Below, piece after piece: positions 15,149 to 43,005 of a stretch of DNA of 44,452 bases. A program made the translations under genes and the position numbers. Source of the stretch: a virus; the IMG/VR virus record IMGVR_UViG_3300010288_000002, positions 1 to 44,452 of that record; one strand, written 5' to 3'. The notes beneath the pieces are model-generated. The model did not search any database, had not been told where the DNA came from, and saw nothing but the letters and a program-made list of their open reading frames with translations. Each line of letters begins with the position of its first letter. The stretch's first letter is position 1.

Positions 15149-15178
15149 TTGTGAGGAGTAGGTAGATGCTCTTAGACA

Positions 15179-15215
15179 CCCCTCGGTGTCATGATAAATA
15201 AATGATACCGAGGGG
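15179..15215 (+). promoter_or_regulatory. Late promoter inside a ribosome-binding-site hairpin
   Basis: CCCCTCGGTGTCAT (15179-15192) pairs with ATGATACCGAGGGG (15202-15215), 13 of 14 Watson-Crick plus one G-U in RNA. The nine-base loop holds GATAAATA (15193-15200), a T4-type late promoter. The right arm contains most of the ribosome binding site of the gene at 15226. Read-through early mRNA would fold and hide it; late mRNA starting near 15207 would lack the left arm. Confidence 0.65.
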
Positions 15216-15225
15216 GTTTCCACAA

Positions 15226-15813
15226 ATGGCATACAATAATCTACGAAAGAAGTTTGAAGAATACAAGCGCAAGAAGGGCGTGGAAACCATGTCCAAGGAA
15301 GCGCTAAACTGGTTCTACGACTACACCAACAAATACGCCAAGGGAGCCTCGTTCTCCAAAACGGTGGGTGCAGGTTCATTCACAAACAAGCCAGTCCCTG
15401 GTCGATTCTACTTGTACCAATATGACCCCAAGACCAAGGAACAGATGCCGTACTATGATGCAATGCCCTTGGTGTTGATAACAGACGTGACAACAGACGG
15501 TTGGTACGGTATCAATTTCCACTACATGCCTCCAGCGGTGCGTCTTAAGATCATGGAGGGGTTCTATGATACACTGAAGAACCCAGCCTTGACCGATGGC
15601 GTCAAACTGAAGGCAAACTGGAAGCGCGCTGTGGCCGTGGCTAAAGCTGCATCGGCACATCGATTCTTGAAGCATAGCATCAAACGATACCTAGCCGATC
15701 ATATAGCTAGTCCTTTGATTGAGCTTGATCCCGAGTATTGGGCAATATGCATCTTTTTGCCCTTGTCAAGGTTCAAGAAGAAATCCGCATCATTCGTTTG
15801 GAGCGACTTCTAA
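15226..15813 (+). CDS. Late protein, probably a virion component
   Basis: A 195-residue basic protein. The central part GRFYLYQYDPKTKEQMPYYDAMPLVLITDV, followed by GWYGINFHYMPPAVR, is a pattern I associate with T4-like structural proteins, possibly the gp2 DNA end protector family, but I cannot confirm that. The late promoter and absence of a nearby early promoter support a virion role. The ATG at 15226 is used because GAGGGGG lies ten bases upstream and the earlier ATG at 15202 would be upstream of the late start. It is the only late gene among the plus-strand early genes and faces the minus-strand tail genes. Confidence 0.6.
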   Translation: MAYNNLRKKFEEYKRKKGVETMSKEALNWFYDYTNKYAKGASFSKTVGAGSFTNKPVPGRFYLYQYDPKTKEQMPYYDAMPLVLITDVTTDGWYGINFHYMPPAVRLKIMEGFYDTLKNPALTDGVKLKANWKRAVAVAKAASAHRFLKHSIKRYLADHIASPLIELDPEYWAICIFLPLSRFKKKSASFVWSDF

Positions 15814-19435: not shown

Positions 19436-19540
19436 TCACCTCTTATAATAACCTAAACTCACCACTCGACCAAGAACGTTATTTGTCGTACAAGTGAGAG
19501 ATGATTTGAAAGAAATCTTGTCTCGGTGAATATCAACCAT
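19436..19540 (-). CDS. Small protein between terminase and tail gene
   Basis: A 34-residue basic ORF, MVDIHRDKISFKSSLTCT and on to VVSLGYYKR. The ATG overlaps the large terminase stop (TGATG) and AAGGTGG lies just upstream; its own stop is three bases before the next ATG. Tight packing on both sides supports a real, translationally coupled gene of unknown function. Confidence 0.55.
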   Translation of the reverse strand: MVDIHRDKISFKSSLTCTTNNVLGRVVSLGYYKR

Positions 19541-21675
19541 CATTCCACCTTCTCCCATTCGCCTGATTGAACATCATCCATCCCATCAAAGAACCCAATA
19601 GGGCTCAATTCTTCCATCAAATCCTCAGAGCTTTCTTCAATGAACGTCTTACGGAAATCTTTCTGCATGATTTCCTTGAAAAACTCTTGTCCCGTTGCCC
19701 AAGCAAAAACAACAAGCGCCATGACCGTATCATCGTGGCACATCTCATCAGCTTCGTATGAATTGTTCTTTGAGATGAATGTGCTGAATTCTTGAATCGT
19801 TGTCCAATCTCGCAATTCATATTTATTCGACTCAATCAATGCCTTGATGATAGAACAACCTTCGCGCTTTGTAGACTTTGTGGTGCGAACACCATTACGT
19901 CCGTTCTTCCAAGATCCGAGAACAATTTTGCCTTTCGATTCACCTGTGGTCAATAGGTTTTCATATTCCTCATCAAAGTAAATTGCATCAGCTACCGCCT
20001 CACCAATGTCATTGATTTCCACAAGGACATAACCGTTGTTGTATTTCTTAGCAATCTCCACAATGATTCGAGGCAAGAGATAGTGGTTTGTCTTGTTATC
20101 ACGGAACATTGCCACTTGTTTGAACGGATACTCTGTAATGTCCGTGACTTGGATAACAGAGTAGTCAATGCCCGCACCTCGAGAACAATCTACACTTAGG
20201 AAGTAGACATGATCTGGCTTTGGGTGTTCATACACCTTCAATGAACCGCTTTGAGCCACAGGTTCACGGTGCACCAATCGTCTCAATGTTGCAGGTGATA
20301 GCAACGTGCTCGCTGATCCTAGGAACTGCGCTTCGAATTCTTGTTCCCACGATTCTTGACCAATGTTAGCAATAGTCTTCTCTTTCCATGCCTCATCACG
20401 GCCAGGAACGTCATACCAGCTGATTTCAAACGGAACGAATTCAGAACGACCCGTAGTTGCCTCGACCCACATCTTGTAGAAGTGGTTCATACCCTTAGGC
20501 GTAGAGAACACCGATATCTTTGACTCCTTACCAGATGAAATGGTAGGATACACGGACTCGAAGAACTCTGTCGCTTGGTTTGGCGGGACGAAGGCGAATT
20601 CATCAAGAACCAACCAGCTTATGCTTGTGTTCGAAGATATTACATCATTGGCAAAATAACACTGGTCACCAACATTTCCTTCAATTATTTCCCAATCTTC
20701 TGATGGCTTCTCTAAAAGATTAAGACTGACAATCTCATCTGTTTTCTTGTTCTTTGCAAATTGAACCCTACCCTCATTGCCCGTCTCAACATATGCGGGA
20801 TCGTACATAAACCCCCGTTCTTCAATCTCCTCGCATTCCAAAATCTCGGCTTTTCCAGTTGCAGTGATGACTTCCATCCCTACTGTCAAATCTTCAGCGT
20901 TAATCCAACCCAGACTGGTAAATAGAGGATGGTTTTTACTTAATCTCAACTCTTTACCGTGACTCAAAAATAACCTGATATGGGATTCACTCGGATAACG
21001 AATCACTGAAGAGAAGTTACTCCAACCTGAAGGCGTTTTTAACAGGTAATCCTTATTCAAAGAAACATCGGGTGAGGATTTATCCAACATCTCAAAGAGA
21101 CCTTCTATTTCAATGTCAAACTCCTCACCTGAAGATATTTTCTTGACATTTAATATGATACTACCGTGTATGCAACCACGAATCGCGCTTGATGATGTTG
21201 AAGCAGCAATGACCTTACATCCGTTGCCTAGGCTGAATGAACCTTTGTTCCAAGATGTGACGCCGACCTGCATCCACAAAGGCAGATGTTCGTACATCAT
21301 TTGGATACGGCTCAAAATTTCACGAGCGGTCGCTGCCTTGTTTGCAAGGATGGCAACGGTCTTATGTTCTTGGAACAGAATGTAGTGCAGGATACAGGCT
21401 GCGGTTGTGGTAGACTTACCAGATTGTCTAGGCAACTTCAAGAGAACGTAACGGTTCTCCATTGTCAAGCGAACAATGTCTTTTTGATAATAGTAGAGCT
21501 TGAACGGCACAAGACCTTTGTCAATATGCACAATCTTGGCATAGTTTTCAATGAAGTAAATTGGATCGCTGTAACACTTCACCAACTCTTGAACCTGCCA
21601 CGGCTCGAAATTGATTTCGACACCCGCCGCTTTCAGGTTCGGGTTGTTTAGGTAAACTTTAACGTCTTGATTCAT
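19540..21675 (-). CDS. 17: Terminase large subunit (T4 gp17-like) with mini-intein
   Basis: ATPase-nuclease motor that cuts concatemers and pumps DNA into the head. The 711-residue precursor has Walker A LPRQSGKSTTT (K87), Walker B WLVLDEFAFV after the intein, and nuclease-domain acidic motifs FLSVDCSRGAGIDYS, VLVEINDIGEA and MCHDDTVMAL. Residues 168-349 are an in-frame intein; removal leaves about 529 residues. The ATG at 21675 lacks a strong ribosome binding site, and a late promoter-like AATAAATA lies upstream. In T4 it follows gene 16; here gene 16 is about 13 kb away on the opposite strand. If splicing failed, DNA packaging should fail. Confidence 0.95.
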   Translation of the reverse strand: MNQDVKVYLNNPNLKAAGVEINFEPWQVQELVKCYSDPIYFIENYAKIVHIDKGLVPFKLYYYQKDIVRLTMENRYVLLKLPRQSGKSTTTAACILHYILFQEHKTVAILANKAATAREILSRIQMMYEHLPLWMQVGVTSWNKGSFSLGNGCKVIAASTSSSAIRGCIHGSIILNVKKISSGEEFDIEIEGLFEMLDKSSPDVSLNKDYLLKTPSGWSNFSSVIRYPSESHIRLFLSHGKELRLSKNHPLFTSLGWINAEDLTVGMEVITATGKAEILECEEIEERGFMYDPAYVETGNEGRVQFAKNKKTDEIVSLNLLEKPSEDWEIIEGNVGDQCYFANDVISSNTSISWLVLDEFAFVPPNQATEFFESVYPTISSGKESKISVFSTPKGMNHFYKMWVEATTGRSEFVPFEISWYDVPGRDEAWKEKTIANIGQESWEQEFEAQFLGSASTLLSPATLRRLVHREPVAQSGSLKVYEHPKPDHVYFLSVDCSRGAGIDYSVIQVTDITEYPFKQVAMFRDNKTNHYLLPRIIVEIAKKYNNGYVLVEINDIGEAVADAIYFDEEYENLLTTGESKGKIVLGSWKNGRNGVRTTKSTKREGCSIIKALIESNKYELRDWTTIQEFSTFISKNNSYEADEMCHDDTVMALVVFAWATGQEFFKEIMQKDFRKTFIEESSEDLMEELSPIGFFDGMDDVQSGEWEKVE
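20629..21174 (-). mobile_element. Mini-intein in the large terminase
   Basis: A 182-residue insertion starting with Cys (CIHGSIILNVKKISS) and ending FANDVISSN before a Thr. Block B is clear (LSKNHPLFTSLGWINAEDLTVGMEVI), and blocks F/G correspond to QCYFANDVISSN. The flanking exteins SSSAIRG and TSISWLVLDEF join to restore the T4 gp17 sequence (DAVRGNSFAMIYIED). The usual penultimate His is Ser. No LAGLIDADG or HNH endonuclease motif is present, so it is not self-mobile. Confidence 0.9.
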
Positions 21676-25963: not shown

Positions 25964-26887
25964 ATGAGTCTATTAGAAAAGCTTAAGAAAAATTCAAAAA
26001 TCAAAGAAACCTCTGTCCTAGAGAATTCCACATTCTTCAACAAAAAAGATGAAATACCCACACCGATTCCTGCTCTTAATATTGCTCTTAGCGGCTCTAT
26101 TGATGGGGGATTGCAACCTGGGCTACTCCAGGTGGCTGGCCCTTCAAAGCATTTTAAGTCCAGCATCTCCTTGGTGATGGCTGCCGCCTACATGAAGAAG
26201 TATCCAGATGCCGTTCTGATGTTTTATGATTCAGAATTCGGTTCTCCCAAGTCATACTTCCAAGCGTTCGGCATTGATACGACTCGTGTCCTTCATACGC
26301 CCATCACCGACATTGAGCAATTGAAGTTTGACATTATGAGCCAGTTGGAGCAAATTCAACGTGGCGACAAGGTCATCTTCTTGATTGACTCTATTGGCAA
26401 CCTTGCATCTAAGAAAGAGGTTGAGGATGCGCTGAACGAAAAGTCCGTGGCTGATATGTCACGCGCTAAGCAGTTGAAATCATTGTTCCGAATGGTTACA
26501 CCCCACCTGACAATCAAGGACATTCCTATGATTGCGATTAACCATGTCTATCAAGAGATTGGTATGTTCCCCAAGGCGATCGTCTCTGGCGGTTGCCTGA
26601 CGGAAAATACTAAAATCCGAATGGCTGACGGCACGACCCGAAACATTCAAGACGTCAAGGAAGGCGAGCTAGTTCAAACACGTTCTGGTCCAAGGAAAGT
26701 GACGGCAACTTGGAATCCCGAAACCCTAGAGGAAGGAACCCCTGAATGTTTTGAGTTGGTGTTTGAGGATGGCTACACGGTTCGTTGTTCTGACAAACAT
26801 CCGTTTCTTGTTAGAATGGGTGACGGCTCGGAGAAGTGGGTGATGGCAAAGGACCTCACTTACGATATGGAGTTTATCCGTCACTAA
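25964..26887 (+). CDS. uvsX: UvsX recombinase N-terminal half fused to split intein IntN
   Basis: Residues 1-210 are the N-terminal part of the RecA-like UvsX recombinase, with Walker A GPSKHFKSS (about 59-67), Walker B VIFLIDSIGN (about 137-146) and the end KAIVSGG, which in T4 continues TGVMYSAD. Residues 211-307 are IntN: CLTENTKIRMADGTTRNIQD (block A) and CSDKHPFLV followed by MAKDL (block B), ending at a TAA. The ATG at 25964 has AGGTGA upstream. The chain cannot be active without its C-half at 27938. UvsX drives strand invasion in recombination-dependent replication and repair. Confidence 0.93.
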   Translation: MSLLEKLKKNSKIKETSVLENSTFFNKKDEIPTPIPALNIALSGSIDGGLQPGLLQVAGPSKHFKSSISLVMAAAYMKKYPDAVLMFYDSEFGSPKSYFQAFGIDTTRVLHTPITDIEQLKFDIMSQLEQIQRGDKVIFLIDSIGNLASKKEVEDALNEKSVADMSRAKQLKSLFRMVTPHLTIKDIPMIAINHVYQEIGMFPKAIVSGGCLTENTKIRMADGTTRNIQDVKEGELVQTRSGPRKVTATWNPETLEEGTPECFELVFEDGYTVRCSDKHPFLVRMGDGSEKWVMAKDLTYDMEFIRH

Positions 26888-26894
26888 CAGGCCA

Positions 26895-26943
26895 GTGCCT
26901 CCTGAAAAAACAGTTTTTATATAAAAGTACATTCAGGAGGCAC
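26895..26943 (+). promoter_or_regulatory. Hairpin sequestering the endonuclease ribosome binding site, with late-like promoter in the loop
   Basis: GTGCCTCCTGAA (26895-26906) is the exact complement of TTCAGGAGGCAC (26932-26943), which contains the ribosome binding site. The loop holds TATAAAAG (26920-26927), six of eight matches to TATAAATA. A late transcript starting near 26933 would lack the left arm and be translatable. This is the arrangement known for T4 I-TevI. Confidence 0.75.
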
Positions 26944-26945
26944 AT

Positions 26946-27869
26946 ATGAAAAAACAAACGATAGAATGGTACAAGAAAAATTTCCCTTCACTTGACCTTA
27001 ACAAACAGCCATCAGATGAAGAAATGCTGATGATATATTCTGCTTTTGATAAAGACCTAAACCTCAAAAACCCCATTATCGTTTCAAAATTGCTTGCGCA
27101 CGGAAACGAACTAAGGGGAATGGTGGAAATTTACAAAATAATAAAGTCAATAGTTAATCCAAGTGGAAAACTGGGCGGGTCTAGACGAAGCAAAACATAT
27201 TGGTTGGTCCGGGGTTATTCTGAAGATGAAGCAAGACGCTTCACAAGTGAAATTCAAAAAGAAAATTCTCCGAGGTGTGTGGAATATTGGGTTAAGCGAG
27301 GCTACACTAAAGATGAGGCCATTGTAAAGGTAAAAGAGACCCAATCTCAGAACGCAATCAAATTTCATCAAAAAGTCAAATCAAATGGTTCATCCGTATC
27401 ACGCTGGAATAAGAATTACTGGATTGCTCGTGGTCTTTCAGAAGAAGAAGCCGCTGAAAAGGTAACAGCACTTCAAACAAGCAATGGCAACAAATATGCT
27501 CAAAAGTATTCAGCCGAAGAGCGAAGAAAACATCAACCATGGTGTGTAGAGTATTGGATTAGTCAAGGTAAAACTGAAGACGAGTATGCCGAATTTATGT
27601 CCTCTCGTTATGCATATTGCTCAAAATCATCGGTTAGATTTTTTGATAGCTTGTGTGAGGAAATTCAATTCGTTAAACCTCATTACGGTGAAAGAGAATT
27701 TGGTAAATTCATCAAAGGATTGGGGTATGTAAAATATGACTTTGTAGACACGGCTCTGAAAATTGTTATAGAATATGATAGCGAATTTTGGCATAGATCG
27801 GAAGAAGCAAAGCGTAGAGACGCAGTGAAACAAGAATTCATGGAAGGATTAGGGTATAAGGTTTTTTAG
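26946..27869 (+). CDS. Free-standing Vsr-like homing endonuclease
   Basis: Sits between the two uvsX halves. The C-terminal region IVIEYDSEFWHRSEEAKRRD fits the EDxHD (Vsr-like) homing endonuclease family of fractured genes. The first 220 residues contain about four repeats of the form YWxxRGxSxDEA (YWLVRGYSEDEA, YWVKRGYTKDEA, YWIARGLSEEEA, YWISQGKTEDEY), probable DNA-binding modules. The strong CAGGAGG before ATG 26946 is inside a hairpin. The frame stops at TAG in GGTTTTTTAG; one T fewer gives KVFRVQFEKHAKDPTNYVKQ and on to 27969, the expected C-terminus, so the gene is probably frameshifted. Expected role: cut intact uvsX alleles and spread the element. Confidence 0.82.
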   Translation: MKKQTIEWYKKNFPSLDLNKQPSDEEMLMIYSAFDKDLNLKNPIIVSKLLAHGNELRGMVEIYKIIKSIVNPSGKLGGSRRSKTYWLVRGYSEDEARRFTSEIQKENSPRCVEYWVKRGYTKDEAIVKVKETQSQNAIKFHQKVKSNGSSVSRWNKNYWIARGLSEEEAAEKVTALQTSNGNKYAQKYSAEERRKHQPWCVEYWISQGKTEDEYAEFMSSRYAYCSKSSVRFFDSLCEEIQFVKPHYGEREFGKFIKGLGYVKYDFVDTALKIVIEYDSEFWHRSEEAKRRDAVKQEFMEGLGYKVF

Positions 27870-27937
27870 AGTGCAATTTGAAAAGCATGCTAAAGACCCC
27901 ACAAATTATGTTAAGCAAATTGCAAAGGAAATAATGA

Positions 27938-28474
27938 ATGAAATTGGTAAGCAAGAAATCAATCGGTAACGTTCCCGTCTTTGATATTTCAGTTGATGAG
28001 GTCGAACACTACATCCTTGAAAATGGTCTCATAACTCATAATACCGGTGGATACTATTCTGCAAACGACATCTGGATCATTGGTCGTTCTCAAGAGAAAG
28101 ATGGCACGGACGTTGCAGGTTATACTTTCACCATCAACATCGAGAAGTCTCGTCGCGTCAAAGAGAAGTCCAAGATTCCTTTGACTGTTATGTTTGACGG
28201 GGGCATTACCCGTTGGTCGGGTTTGCTAGACCTTGCCCTTGAGGGAGGCTTCGTTACTAAGCCAAGTATGGGTTGGTATCAGAAGGTTGATCCTGATACG
28301 GGCGAATTGGTTGAAGGCAAGTATCGTGCCAAGGAAACAAACACGGCAGAATTTTGGGAAGACATCCTGAAGAACCAGAAGTTCAAGGACTTCATCTGTA
28401 AGAAATACCAATTGGTGATGAACGAATCCATCATGTCTGATGAACATGGAGAAGCCGATGCAGACGAAAAATGA
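27938..28474 (+). CDS. uvsX: Split intein IntC fused to UvsX C-terminal half
   Basis: Residues 1-35 are IntC (blocks F and G: VPVFDISVDEVEHYILENGL, then ITHN) followed by the +1 residue Thr. Residues 36-178 are the UvsX C-half: TGGYYSANDIWIIGRSQEKD, YTFTINIEKSRRVKEKSKIP and FDGGITRWSGLLDLALEGGF, matching T4 UvsX in order. Trans-splicing would give a 353-residue UvsX (T4: 391). AAAGGA is nine bases upstream of ATG 27938. An ATG four bases earlier is in another frame, which is the probable tail of the endonuclease reading frame. Next gene overlaps the C-terminus. Confidence 0.92.
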   Translation: MKLVSKKSIGNVPVFDISVDEVEHYILENGLITHNTGGYYSANDIWIIGRSQEKDGTDVAGYTFTINIEKSRRVKEKSKIPLTVMFDGGITRWSGLLDLALEGGFVTKPSMGWYQKVDPDTGELVEGKYRAKETNTAEFWEDILKNQKFKDFICKKYQLVMNESIMSDEHGEADADEK

Positions 28475-32602: not shown

Positions 32603-32610
32603 TATAAATA
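32603..32610 (+). promoter_or_regulatory. Late promoter TATAAATA
   Basis: Exact T4 late consensus, 25 bases before the neck gene start. Confidence 0.85.
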
Positions 32611-32634: not shown

Positions 32635-33381
32635 ATGTCTGCATCTAAACCAGAAACAAGAAAAGAGTTCAAAGCGTATTGCCTGCGCCGTTTGGGTGCG
32701 CCCGTTATTCAAATCAACGTAGACAATCAACAGGTCGAGGATTTGGTCGATGCTGCCTTGGAATATTTTGGTCGAAATCACCATGACGGCAGCATCCAAA
32801 TGTATGTGCCAGTCGAAGCAACAGCTCAAGTCATTCAAGACAAATACTTCCCGATTGATGACTCATTCGTAGGTGTTCAGCGAGTCTTGGAAACGTCATA
32901 TCAAGGATCAAGCCAATTTTCTATTGAATGGCAATTGATGGCTAGCACATATCCTTTTGCACTAAAAGGCGATGGTCTTTTAACATACAGCATGGCGATG
33001 TCTTATCGTGAGACATTGAAGAACGTTGTTTCTGGAAAAACGAAGCACATTCGCTTTAATCGTCATATGGACAGACTGTTCATTGATATTGACTGGAATA
33101 CGGTTCGTGAAGGTCAGATTTTTGTTGTTGAAGCAACAAGAGTTCTCGACCCCGACGAATTCCCACGAGTGTGGAATGACCCTTTTCTCAAAAAATATGC
33201 CACTGCTCTAATCAAGAGACAGTGGGGTAACAACCTTCGTAAGCTACGAAACGTTCAGTTGGTTGGCGGCGTGACAATTGATGCAGAAGGTATACTTCAA
33301 GAAGCAGAAGCAGAGATCAAAGAACTAGAAGAATCCATGATCTTAGAACACCAAGAACCAGTAGACTTCATAATGGGCTAG
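32635..33381 (+). CDS. 13: Neck protein gp13
   Basis: Head completion/neck protein that closes the packaged head before tail joining. The 248-residue product starts with the family pattern TRKEFKAYCLRRLGAPVIQI, NVDNQQVEDLVDAALEYF and keeps the FPIDDSFVGVQRVL and RFNRHMDRLFIDIDW segments of T4-like gp13. TAGGTGG precedes the ATG. It is the first gene of a 13-14-15-16 block driven by the late promoter, in T4 order. Confidence 0.93.
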   Translation: MSASKPETRKEFKAYCLRRLGAPVIQINVDNQQVEDLVDAALEYFGRNHHDGSIQMYVPVEATAQVIQDKYFPIDDSFVGVQRVLETSYQGSSQFSIEWQLMASTYPFALKGDGLLTYSMAMSYRETLKNVVSGKTKHIRFNRHMDRLFIDIDWNTVREGQIFVVEATRVLDPDEFPRVWNDPFLKKYATALIKRQWGNNLRKLRNVQLVGGVTIDAEGILQEAEAEIKELEESMILEHQEPVDFIMG

Positions 33382-38214: not shown

Positions 38215-38604
38215 TTATCTCGTTCTTTCAACGAAGATTGTAATATCCTCGAACCTATTTAAGTCAAGAATTTTGAAGTGAATTGTCACTTCCAGTGCAT
38301 TCTGGTCCTCTTTTTGGAATATAACAATTTTCTGAACCTGAATTCGAGGTTCATAGAGATCAACCATCTCTTTTATTTTTGTCTTGAGAAACTCTGTTGT
38401 AATTGGTGTAAAGTTCTCAAACAAAGAACCGTTCAACAATGTTCCCTTTTCTGGATTGAAAGGGACGTCATAAAGATTGGTCATAACAAGGTTTCGCAGA
38501 GATTTCTTAATTGCTTCAACATCTGTAGCCGAGACAACATCTCCAGTAAGCGGATGTTTTTCAAACGCCAGATTGATATCTCGGTAAACATATTTCTTTG
38601 CCAT
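38215..38604 (-). CDS. 25: Baseplate wedge protein gp25
   Basis: Wedge protein of the gpW/gp25 family, which seeds sheath polymerisation at the baseplate. The 129-residue product has YRDINLAFEKHPLTGDVVSA and the family signature AIKKSLRNLVMTNLYDVPFN, then FLKTKIKEMVDLYEPRIQV. Length matches T4 gp25 (132). A perfect late promoter lies 31 bases upstream of its ATG. Confidence 0.95.
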   Translation of the reverse strand: MAKKYVYRDINLAFEKHPLTGDVVSATDVEAIKKSLRNLVMTNLYDVPFNPEKGTLLNGSLFENFTPITTEFLKTKIKEMVDLYEPRIQVQKIVIFQKEDQNALEVTIHFKILDLNRFEDITIFVERTR

Positions 38605-38634: not shown

Positions 38635-38642
38635 TATTTATA
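38635..38642 (-). promoter_or_regulatory. Late promoter TATAAATA for the baseplate genes
   Basis: Exact T4 late consensus on the minus strand. Its upstream five bases overlap the last codons of phoH. Confidence 0.85.
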
Positions 38643-41280: not shown

Positions 41281-43005
41281 TCATGTCAATAGCGGATGAT
41301 AATTCAAATCCAATAATCTCTGAATTGTTCCGTCTTGGTTTCTAACTAGTGGCACGGGGGTTCTAGTTCTTCCAGAATCCGAACCTTGAGACGTTGAAAT
41401 ATTACTTTGATTATTTATTGCAATTGGCACAATTGTAGGATTTGCTTTCATGTCTTGTTTCTCGGCATTAGTTTGTTCAATCTGCTGAGTCAAAAACTGA
41501 AGGTTATTTGTCTTTGTCTGGCCTGGTTGAATTGTGCCGATGTTAGGTTTTACCGTATTAGAAACATTAACCCGAGGTATCTTTGTTTCTAACGGCGAAT
41601 TTGAAGGAGCAACTGCATTGATAACGTCACCCACAACCTCGCCGCCCTTTTCACCTAGGAAGTATCCACCAATACCACCAATCACACCGCCGATTGCAGC
41701 TCCAATAGGACCGCCTATTGCGCCTACCATTGCACCAGCCTTGGCTCCAGCTAGGGCACCTGCCGTTTTGCCACCTATCTTGGAATACTCTATTGTCTTC
41801 TGTTCAGATGAAAGTTTCTCGTCTTTGCTTACGTTGTAGGCTTCATATGCGCCAATGCCTAATGTCAAAGGGGCACCCAATGCCTTAGCTCCAATGTTCT
41901 TGGCACCTTGTAGGAAACCACCTTTTACAGCCGCGGGCGCAACTGCTCCGCCCACCTTGGTGGCGTTTGTTGCAGCTAGTGCAGGCAATGTTGATGAAAC
42001 TGCTGGGGCCGCACTAGCTGCGGCGCTTCCTGCACCCACAAGACCAAGGGCTTTCAAAGGGGCAGGTGCTCTTGAAGCGGCACCTTTCATTGCTCCCCAT
42101 ATGCCCTTTGCACCGCCTGTATTTTTCCAAGCATTAGATGCTGCTAATGCACCGTTTTTAGCGCCCTGCCACACACCCCCAACAGCACCTTTCACACCTT
42201 GCCAAACAGAACTAGCTGCTCCTTTGACGCCACCCAATACTTTACCACCTAGGCGACTAGATGCGGCCTTGATGCCTGCATACCCCAAGACAGCATTTAC
42301 TAAGCCATTCATAATGGCGTCCATGATGTCGCCCTTACCACCTACACTCGCTGCTCCAACAGAACCAGTTGCTCCCATTTGCAACATACGCTGAGCTGCT
42401 CTAGCTTTACGAGCTTCGATTTCATCCTCACGTTGCTTCAGAGAATCGACGCGGGTGTTCTTTTCAACAGCCTGCATTACCTTAACAATTTGACCATTGA
42501 TGTCCAAAAGCTCTACAAGAGTCTCTTGGCTCTTTTCGGGGACGTCTATGATTTCAGCGATAGACCCTTCTGTTTTATTTGAATACCCTAGAAGCAGAGG
42601 TGTTGTTGAATTGTTAGATGATGAACCTTCACCACCTAGCTTTTTTAAGATCTTTGTTAGGTTTTCATTCGTTTCAGTGAAGCCTTCGTCTATTGTATCT
42701 AGCAGTTCTTCAACTAGATCGATGTCCGTTTCATCATCAGTTTCAAATGCGGGTTTATCAGTGCTGATGGTTGATCGGTTGGGTTCGACTTTTTTTGTTC
42801 TATCACTTATTATATCCAAAATCTTATTGACTCCGCGACCGAAGAATTTGGGCATGATTGCGTTAACTACATTTTTACGAGTGAACACACTCTTAACATT
42901 TTCAACCGAATCCTCGGCGAAATTTTTAACGCCTTCCTTTAGCTTTTGAGGTAGCTTTGTTAGTTCTTCAATTGCTTTTCTTAGCTTACTTTCTTCGTTT
43001 GGCAT
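41281..43005 (-). CDS. Large Ala/Gly-rich tail protein (hub or tape-measure-like)
   Basis: A 574-residue protein. The N-terminal third is charged and helical, with coiled-coil character (SLKQREDEIEARKARAAQRM). The middle and C-terminal parts are Ala/Gly-rich with hydrophobic segments (GAKAGAMVGAIGGPIGAAIG, GVIGGIGGYFLGEKGGEVVG) and repeated GVKGAASSVWQGVKGAVGGVW units, like tape-measure or tail-associated proteins. The end is Asn/Gln/Thr-rich. Position next to gp51 and gp26 points to the baseplate hub. ATG 43005 begins MPNEESKLRKAI and overlaps the gp51 gene; an earlier start at 43071 would overlap it fully. Confidence 0.7.
   Translation of the reverse strand: MPNEESKLRKAIEELTKLPQKLKEGVKNFAEDSVENVKSVFTRKNVVNAIMPKFFGRGVNKILDIISDRTKKVEPNRSTISTDKPAFETDDETDIDLVEELLDTIDEGFTETNENLTKILKKLGGEGSSSNNSTTPLLLGYSNKTEGSIAEIIDVPEKSQETLVELLDINGQIVKVMQAVEKNTRVDSLKQREDEIEARKARAAQRMLQMGATGSVGAASVGGKGDIMDAIMNGLVNAVLGYAGIKAASSRLGGKVLGGVKGAASSVWQGVKGAVGGVWQGAKNGALAASNAWKNTGGAKGIWGAMKGAASRAPAPLKALGLVGAGSAAASAAPAVSSTLPALAATNATKVGGAVAPAAVKGGFLQGAKNIGAKALGAPLTLGIGAYEAYNVSKDEKLSSEQKTIEYSKIGGKTAGALAGAKAGAMVGAIGGPIGAAIGGVIGGIGGYFLGEKGGEVVGDVINAVAPSNSPLETKIPRVNVSNTVKPNIGTIQPGQTKTNNLQFLTQQIEQTNAEKQDMKANPTIVPIAINNQSNISTSQGSDSGRTRTPVPLVRNQDGTIQRLLDLNYHPLLT

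What the first reader, a model, noticed from the sequence alone, without database searches (positions are those of the whole stretch)
26895..26943. Endonuclease ribosome binding site in a 12-bp hairpin with a late-like promoter in the loop
Seen: perfect 12-bp inverted repeat whose 3' arm contains CAGGAGG just before the ATG, with TATAAAAG in the 25-base loop. Known: T4 I-TevI and some other T4 genes are silenced in early transcripts by such hairpins and expressed from an internal late promoter. Inference: the endonuclease is translated only late, protecting the phage genome during replication, although uvsX itself is read through early.
Basis: partly seen in the sequence, partly recalled or inferred. 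Interest (0 to 1): 0.78.

Follow-up and report, generated by a model that had tools for sequence, protein, structure and literature searches.

The report
Hairpin-locked endonuclease gene between intein halves
In a T4-like phage, a selfish DNA-cutting gene sits between the two halves of a split recombination gene, and its ribosome-binding site is buried in a strong RNA hairpin that should keep it silent; the same lock occurs in nearly all related phages with a late-phase promoter built into it, but here that promoter looks worn and the cutting gene itself appears frameshifted.

Summary
The hairpin is real: two perfect 12-base arms (26895-26906, 26932-26943) bury the endonuclease Shine-Dalgarno. 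None of 20,000 shuffles reproduces it. Opening the start site costs about 13 kcal/mol on a read-through transcript and about 1 if transcription began at 26933. The locus is a fractured uvsX: N-half plus IntN, endonuclease gene, IntC plus C-half.

In relatives, 41 distinct IntN-endonuclease gaps mostly carry a hairpin over the start site, with exact TATAAATA in 25 and at most one mismatch in 34. None of 14 endonuclease-less split inteins has exact TATAAATA, and their start sites are open. So an I-TevI-like lock with internal late release comes with endonucleases in this slot. The mechanism is known (I-TevI, segB, Aeh1 mobE); I found no description of it for split inteins.

The window's promoter claim is weak. 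TATAAAAG matches 6 of 8 bases, as expected by chance in this AT-rich loop. This phage's own late motif is NATAAATA, strict at positions 2-8. The endonuclease frame also breaks at a T6 run (27862-27867). Most likely the lock is intact, while late release is weakened or lost. "Protects the genome" is untested. All regulation here is inferred from sequence.

The parts
25964..26887 (+). uvsX N-terminal half fused to the intein N-fragment (GGC|LTENTKIRMADG...), stop TAA 26885-26887
   Evidence: Pfam RecA and Hint-like Vint matches; IntN alignment with 13 relatives, 28 invariant columns
26895..26906 (+). left (anti-SD) arm of the hairpin, GTGCCTCCTGAA
26907..26931 (+). 25-nt loop
26920..26927 (+). 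TATAAAAG: candidate, off-consensus late promoter (6/8 of TATAAATA); would start transcription near 26933
   Evidence: 18 nt from the ATG, where relatives have TATAAATA at 17-40 nt
26932..26943 (+). right arm of the hairpin, TTCAGGAGGCAC, holds the Shine-Dalgarno
26935..26940 (+). Shine-Dalgarno AGGAGG, 5 nt before the ATG
26946..27869 (+). endonuclease gene, open frame of 307 aa; PD-(D/E)XK / Vsr-like C-terminal domain (DUF559, MTES_1575)
27862..27867 (+). T6 run directly before the in-frame TAG (27867-27869); the frame is interrupted here
27868..27969 (+). rest of the nuclease domain in the +1 frame (33 aa and stop)
   Evidence: Pfam MTES_1575 goes from 20.5 to 36.1 bits and reaches the profile end when both parts are read
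27938..28474 (+). intein C-fragment (ends ...LITHN|T) fused to the uvsX C-terminal half
   Evidence: Pfam T4_UVSX_C 2.8e-19; IntC motif as in relatives
32603..32610 (+). TATAAATA, late-promoter site of this phage upstream of the ORF at 32635
38635..38642 (-). TATAAATA, late-promoter site of this phage upstream of the ORF 38215-38604 (-)

Best explanation
The repeat is the regulatory head of a homing-endonuclease cassette that occupies the gap of a split uvsX intein. Messages that start upstream of uvsX must run through the endonuclease gene to reach the intein C-half, so the endonuclease cannot be silenced by stopping transcription. On these messages the left arm pairs with the Shine-Dalgarno and blocks its translation. 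In the standard design, seen in most relatives, a late promoter (TATAAATA) in the loop or in the left arm makes late messages that lack the left arm and are translated. In this phage the lock is intact but the promoter box (TATAAAAG) is off-consensus and the nuclease frame is interrupted at a T6 run. This copy is therefore probably a locked, partly decayed version with weak or no late release. Shown: sequence, hairpin, comparison, own late motif, frame interruption. Inferred: translational block, late release, decay.
For: Hairpin beyond chance and over the SD; opening energy 13.0 to 0.9 kcal/mol if transcription began at 26933, RNA then unstructured. Across 41 distinct IntN-endonuclease gaps median opening energy 10.8, against 1.8 in 14 endonuclease-less split inteins (Mann-Whitney 8e-8); exact TATAAATA 25/41 against 0/14 (Fisher 3e-5). 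Endonucleases fall in 26 clusters at 60% identity and differ in nuclease class (HNH, GIY-YIG/NUMOD3, Vsr-like) with unrelated arm sequences. Compensatory T-A to C-G change in 3 of 9 close relatives. Positive controls: T4 I-TevI 13.5 to 4.9, I-TevII 12.7 to 0.3. gp55 (39% identity, E 1.5e-21) and gp45 (E 3e-21) in the sister contig. The three most occluded start sites of this phage also have NATAAATA between hairpin arms. Literature: PMC2988022, PMC3014915.
Against: The promoter box fails the phage's own motif and is not beyond chance. A ribosome stopping at 26887 might melt part of the left arm: opening energy 13.5, 8.9 or 3.6 for 9, 10 or 12 hidden bases, so silence may be incomplete. No transcript data. 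The relatives are best-match loci and partly related, so the counts are not independent. Truncating a transcript lowers structure in any case.
Confidence: 0.7

Rival explanations
1. Fully working I-TevI-type switch: TATAAAAG is a functional, weaker late promoter, and the endonuclease is made late.
For: Its distance to the ATG (18 nt) fits TATAAATA in relatives (17-40 nt). It keeps TATAAA. TATAAAAG occurs 4 times in the genome and 2 of these lie upstream of ORFs (0.23 expected). The start from 26933 frees the site completely.
Against: Positions 7-8 of the late box are strict in this phage and the literature finds only position -13 variable in most T4-like phages (PMC1524935, PMC2984593). 6/8 is expected by chance in the loop. 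The second TATAAAAG lies 53 nt upstream of its ORF.
Confidence: 0.3
2. Translational coupling: the ribosome that ends at the IntN stop (26887) opens the hairpin, so the endonuclease is made together with uvsX, early, at a reduced rate.
For: The stop lies 7 nt before the left arm; with 12 nt hidden by a terminating ribosome the start site is nearly open (3.6 kcal/mol).
Against: With 9-10 nt hidden the site stays closed (13.5, 8.9), and 32 of 41 relatives stay at 5 kcal/mol or more with 10 nt hidden, so coupling is not the design of the class.
Confidence: 0.2
3. The inverted repeat is a DNA operator for autorepression by the endonuclease, as for I-TevI.
For: I-TevI binds an operator over its late promoter (PMC2988022).
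Against: Arms carry SD and anti-SD exactly, arm sequences differ wholly among relatives while pairing is kept; 25-nt spacing is wide for a dyad.
Confidence: 0.06
4. Transcription terminator or chance repeat.
For: Stable hairpin between genes.
Against: No T run after the stem, long loop; not called by the terminator scan; chance excluded.
Confidence: 0.03

Closest known systems
T4 I-TevI, I-TevII, I-TevIII hairpins with internal late or middle promoters (Gott 1988; reviewed in PMC2988022)
   Same: SD of a homing endonuclease sequestered in transcripts from upstream promoters; release by transcription starting inside the hairpin
   Different: Those lie in group I introns; this one lies between two translated halves of a split intein, and its promoter box is off-consensus
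Aeh1 mobE, HNH endonuclease within a split nrdA (Gibb and Edgell 2007, 2009, cited in PMC2988022)
   Same: Free-standing endonuclease that splits a host gene in two, RBS in a hairpin, late promoter
   Different: nrdA works as two peptides without an intein; other nuclease family
Fractured genes with split inteins (Dassa et al. 2009, cited in PMC3229294; paper not held, content from own knowledge)
   Same: Free-standing endonuclease gene, Vsr-like family, between the halves of a split intein gene
   Different: To my knowledge that work does not treat expression control; the hairpin and promoter head is what is added here
T4 gene e and similar genes with hairpin-occluded start sites and internal late promoters (PMC3014915)
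   Same: Same two-part logic
   Different: Phage's own genes, not mobile endonucleases

Membership tests
Hairpin-gated homing endonuclease (I-TevI type) | stable hairpin that pairs the endonuclease SD on transcripts from upstream | tested here: met
Hairpin-gated homing endonuclease (I-TevI type) | late promoter placed so that late mRNA lacks the 5' arm | tested here: inconclusive
   position fits, but the box is TATAAAAG against NATAAATA of this phage; met in most relatives
Hairpin-gated homing endonuclease (I-TevI type) | phage has the late transcription apparatus (gp55, gp45) | tested here: met
   sister contig; gp33 not looked for
Hairpin-gated homing endonuclease (I-TevI type) | shown delay of translation until late | not testable with these tools
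   no expression data
Hairpin-gated homing endonuclease (I-TevI type) | intact homing endonuclease | tested here: inconclusive
   nuclease domain present but the frame is interrupted at T6
Fractured gene with split intein | IntN and IntC halves on separate ORFs of one host gene with a free-standing endonuclease gene between | tested here: met
Fractured gene with split intein | trans-splicing activity | not testable with these tools
   splice-junction residues Cys1 and HN|T are present in the sequence
Intrinsic terminator | GC-rich stem, short loop, T run after the stem | tested here: not met
   25-nt loop, no T run

The most novel reading that the evidence does not exclude
Endonuclease genes of unrelated nuclease classes that occupy the uvsX split-intein slot have repeatedly been given the same two-part switch (hairpin over the start site plus internal late promoter), because the intein C-half downstream must be transcribed early. 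The window shows a copy in which release and nuclease are eroding while the lock remains, or in which the nuclease is completed by +1 frameshifting at UUU UAG.
Probability: 0.35. Interest if true: 0.6.

Novelty: new member of a known kind. Interest (0 to 1): 0.5.

Why it matters
It extends the I-TevI-type lock from introns and single free-standing genes to the split-intein slot as a class. It suggests a reason: an endonuclease between two halves of an essential gene must be transcribed through but not translated. It gives a natural series (fused intein, split intein without endonuclease, split with locked endonuclease, and an eroded copy) in which gain and loss of the switch can be tested.

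Tried and rejected
Terminator and sigma-70 promoter readings. An Rfam family (only a chance match). More copies of this exact hairpin with other loops: only the sister contig. Relatives of the window endonuclease in viral contigs: only the sister contig; in phages only 34% matches in Prevotella Lak phages over part of the protein. Solved structures: chance matches only. AlphaFold of the nuclease domain without alignment was too poor to use (mean pLDDT 51). Endonucleases of the same family outside uvsX show the switch only in part (19 of 53 with NATAAATA upstream; no significant difference in start-site closure), so the regularity belongs to the uvsX slot more than to the nuclease family. Covariation inside one group of relatives is modest: one pair with changes on both sides.

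Full report
WHAT IS THERE. The window is a 44,452-base virus record of a T4-like phage. A second IMG/VR contig, G001 (90.8 kb), is identical over the first 15.3 kb of the shared stretch, endonuclease region included. At 25964-28474 uvsX is split: an N-half ending in an intein N-fragment (stop 26885-26887), a 307-aa endonuclease frame (26946-27869), and an intein C-fragment with the uvsX C-half (27938-28474). Between the first stop and the endonuclease ATG lie two perfect 12-base arms, 26895-26906 and 26932-26943, with a 25-base loop. The right arm carries the Shine-Dalgarno AGGAGG.

IS IT MORE THAN CHANCE. For the hairpin, yes. None of 20,000 dinucleotide shuffles of the gap gave a 12-bp partner for the SD/ATG side, and it is the only perfect 12-bp repeat in the window with a loop above 10 nt. 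RNA folding gives -22.2 kcal/mol against a shuffled mean of -10.75 (z -4.4). Opening the SD-to-AUG stretch costs 13.0 kcal/mol, 4th of 137 ORFs in this phage, median 5.1. For the promoter, no. TATAAAAG matches 6 of 8 bases of TATAAATA; 63% of shuffled loops do as well, and 6% contain TATAAA.

THE PHAGE'S OWN LATE PROMOTERS. TATAAATA occurs twice in the window, both times just upstream of an ORF, and 6 of 9 copies in the sister contig lie within 60 bp of an ORF start, 0.31 expected. AATAAATA (6 of 9), CATAAATA (3 of 4) and GATAAATA (4 of 4) are equally placed, whereas changes at positions 2 to 8 are not enriched. They stand before ORFs that look like capsid, sheath and portal genes from their first residues (my reading). 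This equals the NATAAATA of marine T4-like phages (PMC2984593) and the variable -13 position of T4-like phages (PMC1524935). A late sigma factor gp55 and the clamp gp45 are encoded in the sister contig. TATAAAAG differs at the two last, otherwise strict, positions.

COMPARISON. An alignment of intein N-fragments brought 80 loci from viral contigs, joined with annotated phages. Of these, 41 distinct gaps (the window included) have an endonuclease downstream of the IntN stop, and 14 distinct gaps lead directly into IntC. Of the 41, 25 hold exact TATAAATA and 34 at most one mismatch; of the 14 none holds exact TATAAATA (Fisher 3.4e-5). Median start-site opening energy is 10.8 against 1.8 kcal/mol (Mann-Whitney 8e-8). 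Starting the transcript 6 nt after the promoter box lowers it in 39 of 41, partly because any shortening does. The endonucleases form 26 clusters at 60% identity and include HNH, GIY-YIG-like and, in the window, Vsr-like nucleases; NUMOD3 is shared by 21 of 23 scanned, not by the window. Arm sequences differ wholly between groups. Within one group of nine, a T-A pair is replaced by C-G in three. T4 I-TevI and I-TevII, run through the same calculation, give 13.5 to 4.9 and 12.7 to 0.3.

SAME DESIGN ON THE PHAGE'S OWN GENES. The three most occluded start sites of this phage (15202-15813 in the window, and 26237-27667 and 88311-89381 of the reverse-complemented sister contig) all have NATAAATA 24-28 nt upstream, between hairpin arms, with opening energies 18.7, 16.1 and 15.3. 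The endonuclease is fourth and is the one without a proper box. So the architecture is in use in this phage, and the endonuclease copy is the odd one out.

THE ENDONUCLEASE FRAME IS BROKEN. The in-frame TAG at 27867 follows a T6 run (27862-27867). The next 33 residues of the nuclease domain continue in the +1 frame, 27868-27969. Reading both parts raises the Pfam MTES_1575 score from 20.5 to 36.1 bits, to the end of the profile, and DUF559 to 31.8, above its cut-off of 20.6. The same T6 is in the sister contig, but I cannot show that the two assemblies are independent. It may be a real loss, a homopolymer error, or a +1 frameshift site (UUU UAG).

HOW IT MOST LIKELY WORKS. Since the intein C-half lies downstream, uvsX messages must be transcribed through the endonuclease. 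A block at translation is the simplest way to keep the endonuclease silent on them (inference). The hairpin does that by pairing the SD (structure shown by calculation, block inferred from I-TevI and mobE; PMC2988022, PMC3014915). In most relatives a late promoter in the loop or left arm gives messages without the left arm. In the window this release element is weak at best. A ribosome ending at 26887 may open the base of the stem: the energy is 13.5, 8.9 or 3.6 for 9, 10 or 12 hidden bases, while 32 of 41 relatives stay closed at 10. Leaky coupled expression therefore remains possible here.

Observation right for the hairpin, over-read for the promoter. The analogy with I-TevI is right in kind. 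The stated purpose, protecting the genome during replication, is untested; deletion of the I-TevI hairpin in T4 harmed intron splicing rather than viability or burst size with thymidine added (PMC3014915).

NOVELTY. The mechanism is known. No paper in the held library joins split inteins, homing endonucleases and late promoters, or split inteins, homing endonucleases and uvsX; the four that join free-standing homing endonucleases, split inteins and phages were seen as titles and abstracts, and the one read in part had no promoter text. The library is incomplete, and Dassa et al. 2009 itself is not held. I file it as a new member of a known kind, with the slot-wide regularity as the more interesting part.

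Noticed in passing
window 27862-27969: Endonuclease frame interrupted at a T6 run directly before TAG; the rest of the nuclease domain continues in the +1 frame and overlaps the IntC start. Same in the sister contig. Pseudogene, homopolymer error or +1 frameshifting at UUU UAG.
   Followed up: partly
window 19540-21675 (-): Large terminase of 711 aa with an insertion of roughly 170-300 aa matching intein splicing domains weakly (Pfam Intein_splicing 0.0016; homologues align in two pieces around it): probably a contiguous intein.
   Followed up: partly
window 15150-15230 (+): GATAAATA at 15193 between arms CCCCTCGGTGTCAT and ATGATACCGAGGGGG before the gene starting at about 15226: the most occluded start site of the phage (18.7 kcal/mol), a clean hairpin plus late promoter switch on a gene of unknown function.
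   Followed up: partly
L087-L091 (sister contig G001), reverse-complement coordinates 26237-27667 and 88311-89381: Two more genes with NATAAATA between hairpin arms over the start site.
   Followed up: partly
L133, L135, L138: Nearly identical uvsX inteins occur as a contiguous intein (L133), split with a locked endonuclease (L135) and split without endonuclease (L138): a natural series for gain or loss of the endonuclease.
   Followed up: no
L102 3910-3975 (Salmonella phage SEA1): The hairpin is kept through paired changes (GCGGATAC/GTATCCGC) although the start codon that lay in its right arm in sister phages is lost; the endonuclease start in the record (3919) is probably wrong.
   Followed up: partly
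window 42065 onward: The window and the sister contig G001 are identical for 15.3 kb and then differ from about 42065, in or near the gene at 41281-43005 (574 aa in the window, 630 aa in G001), probably an insertion or deletion.
   Followed up: no
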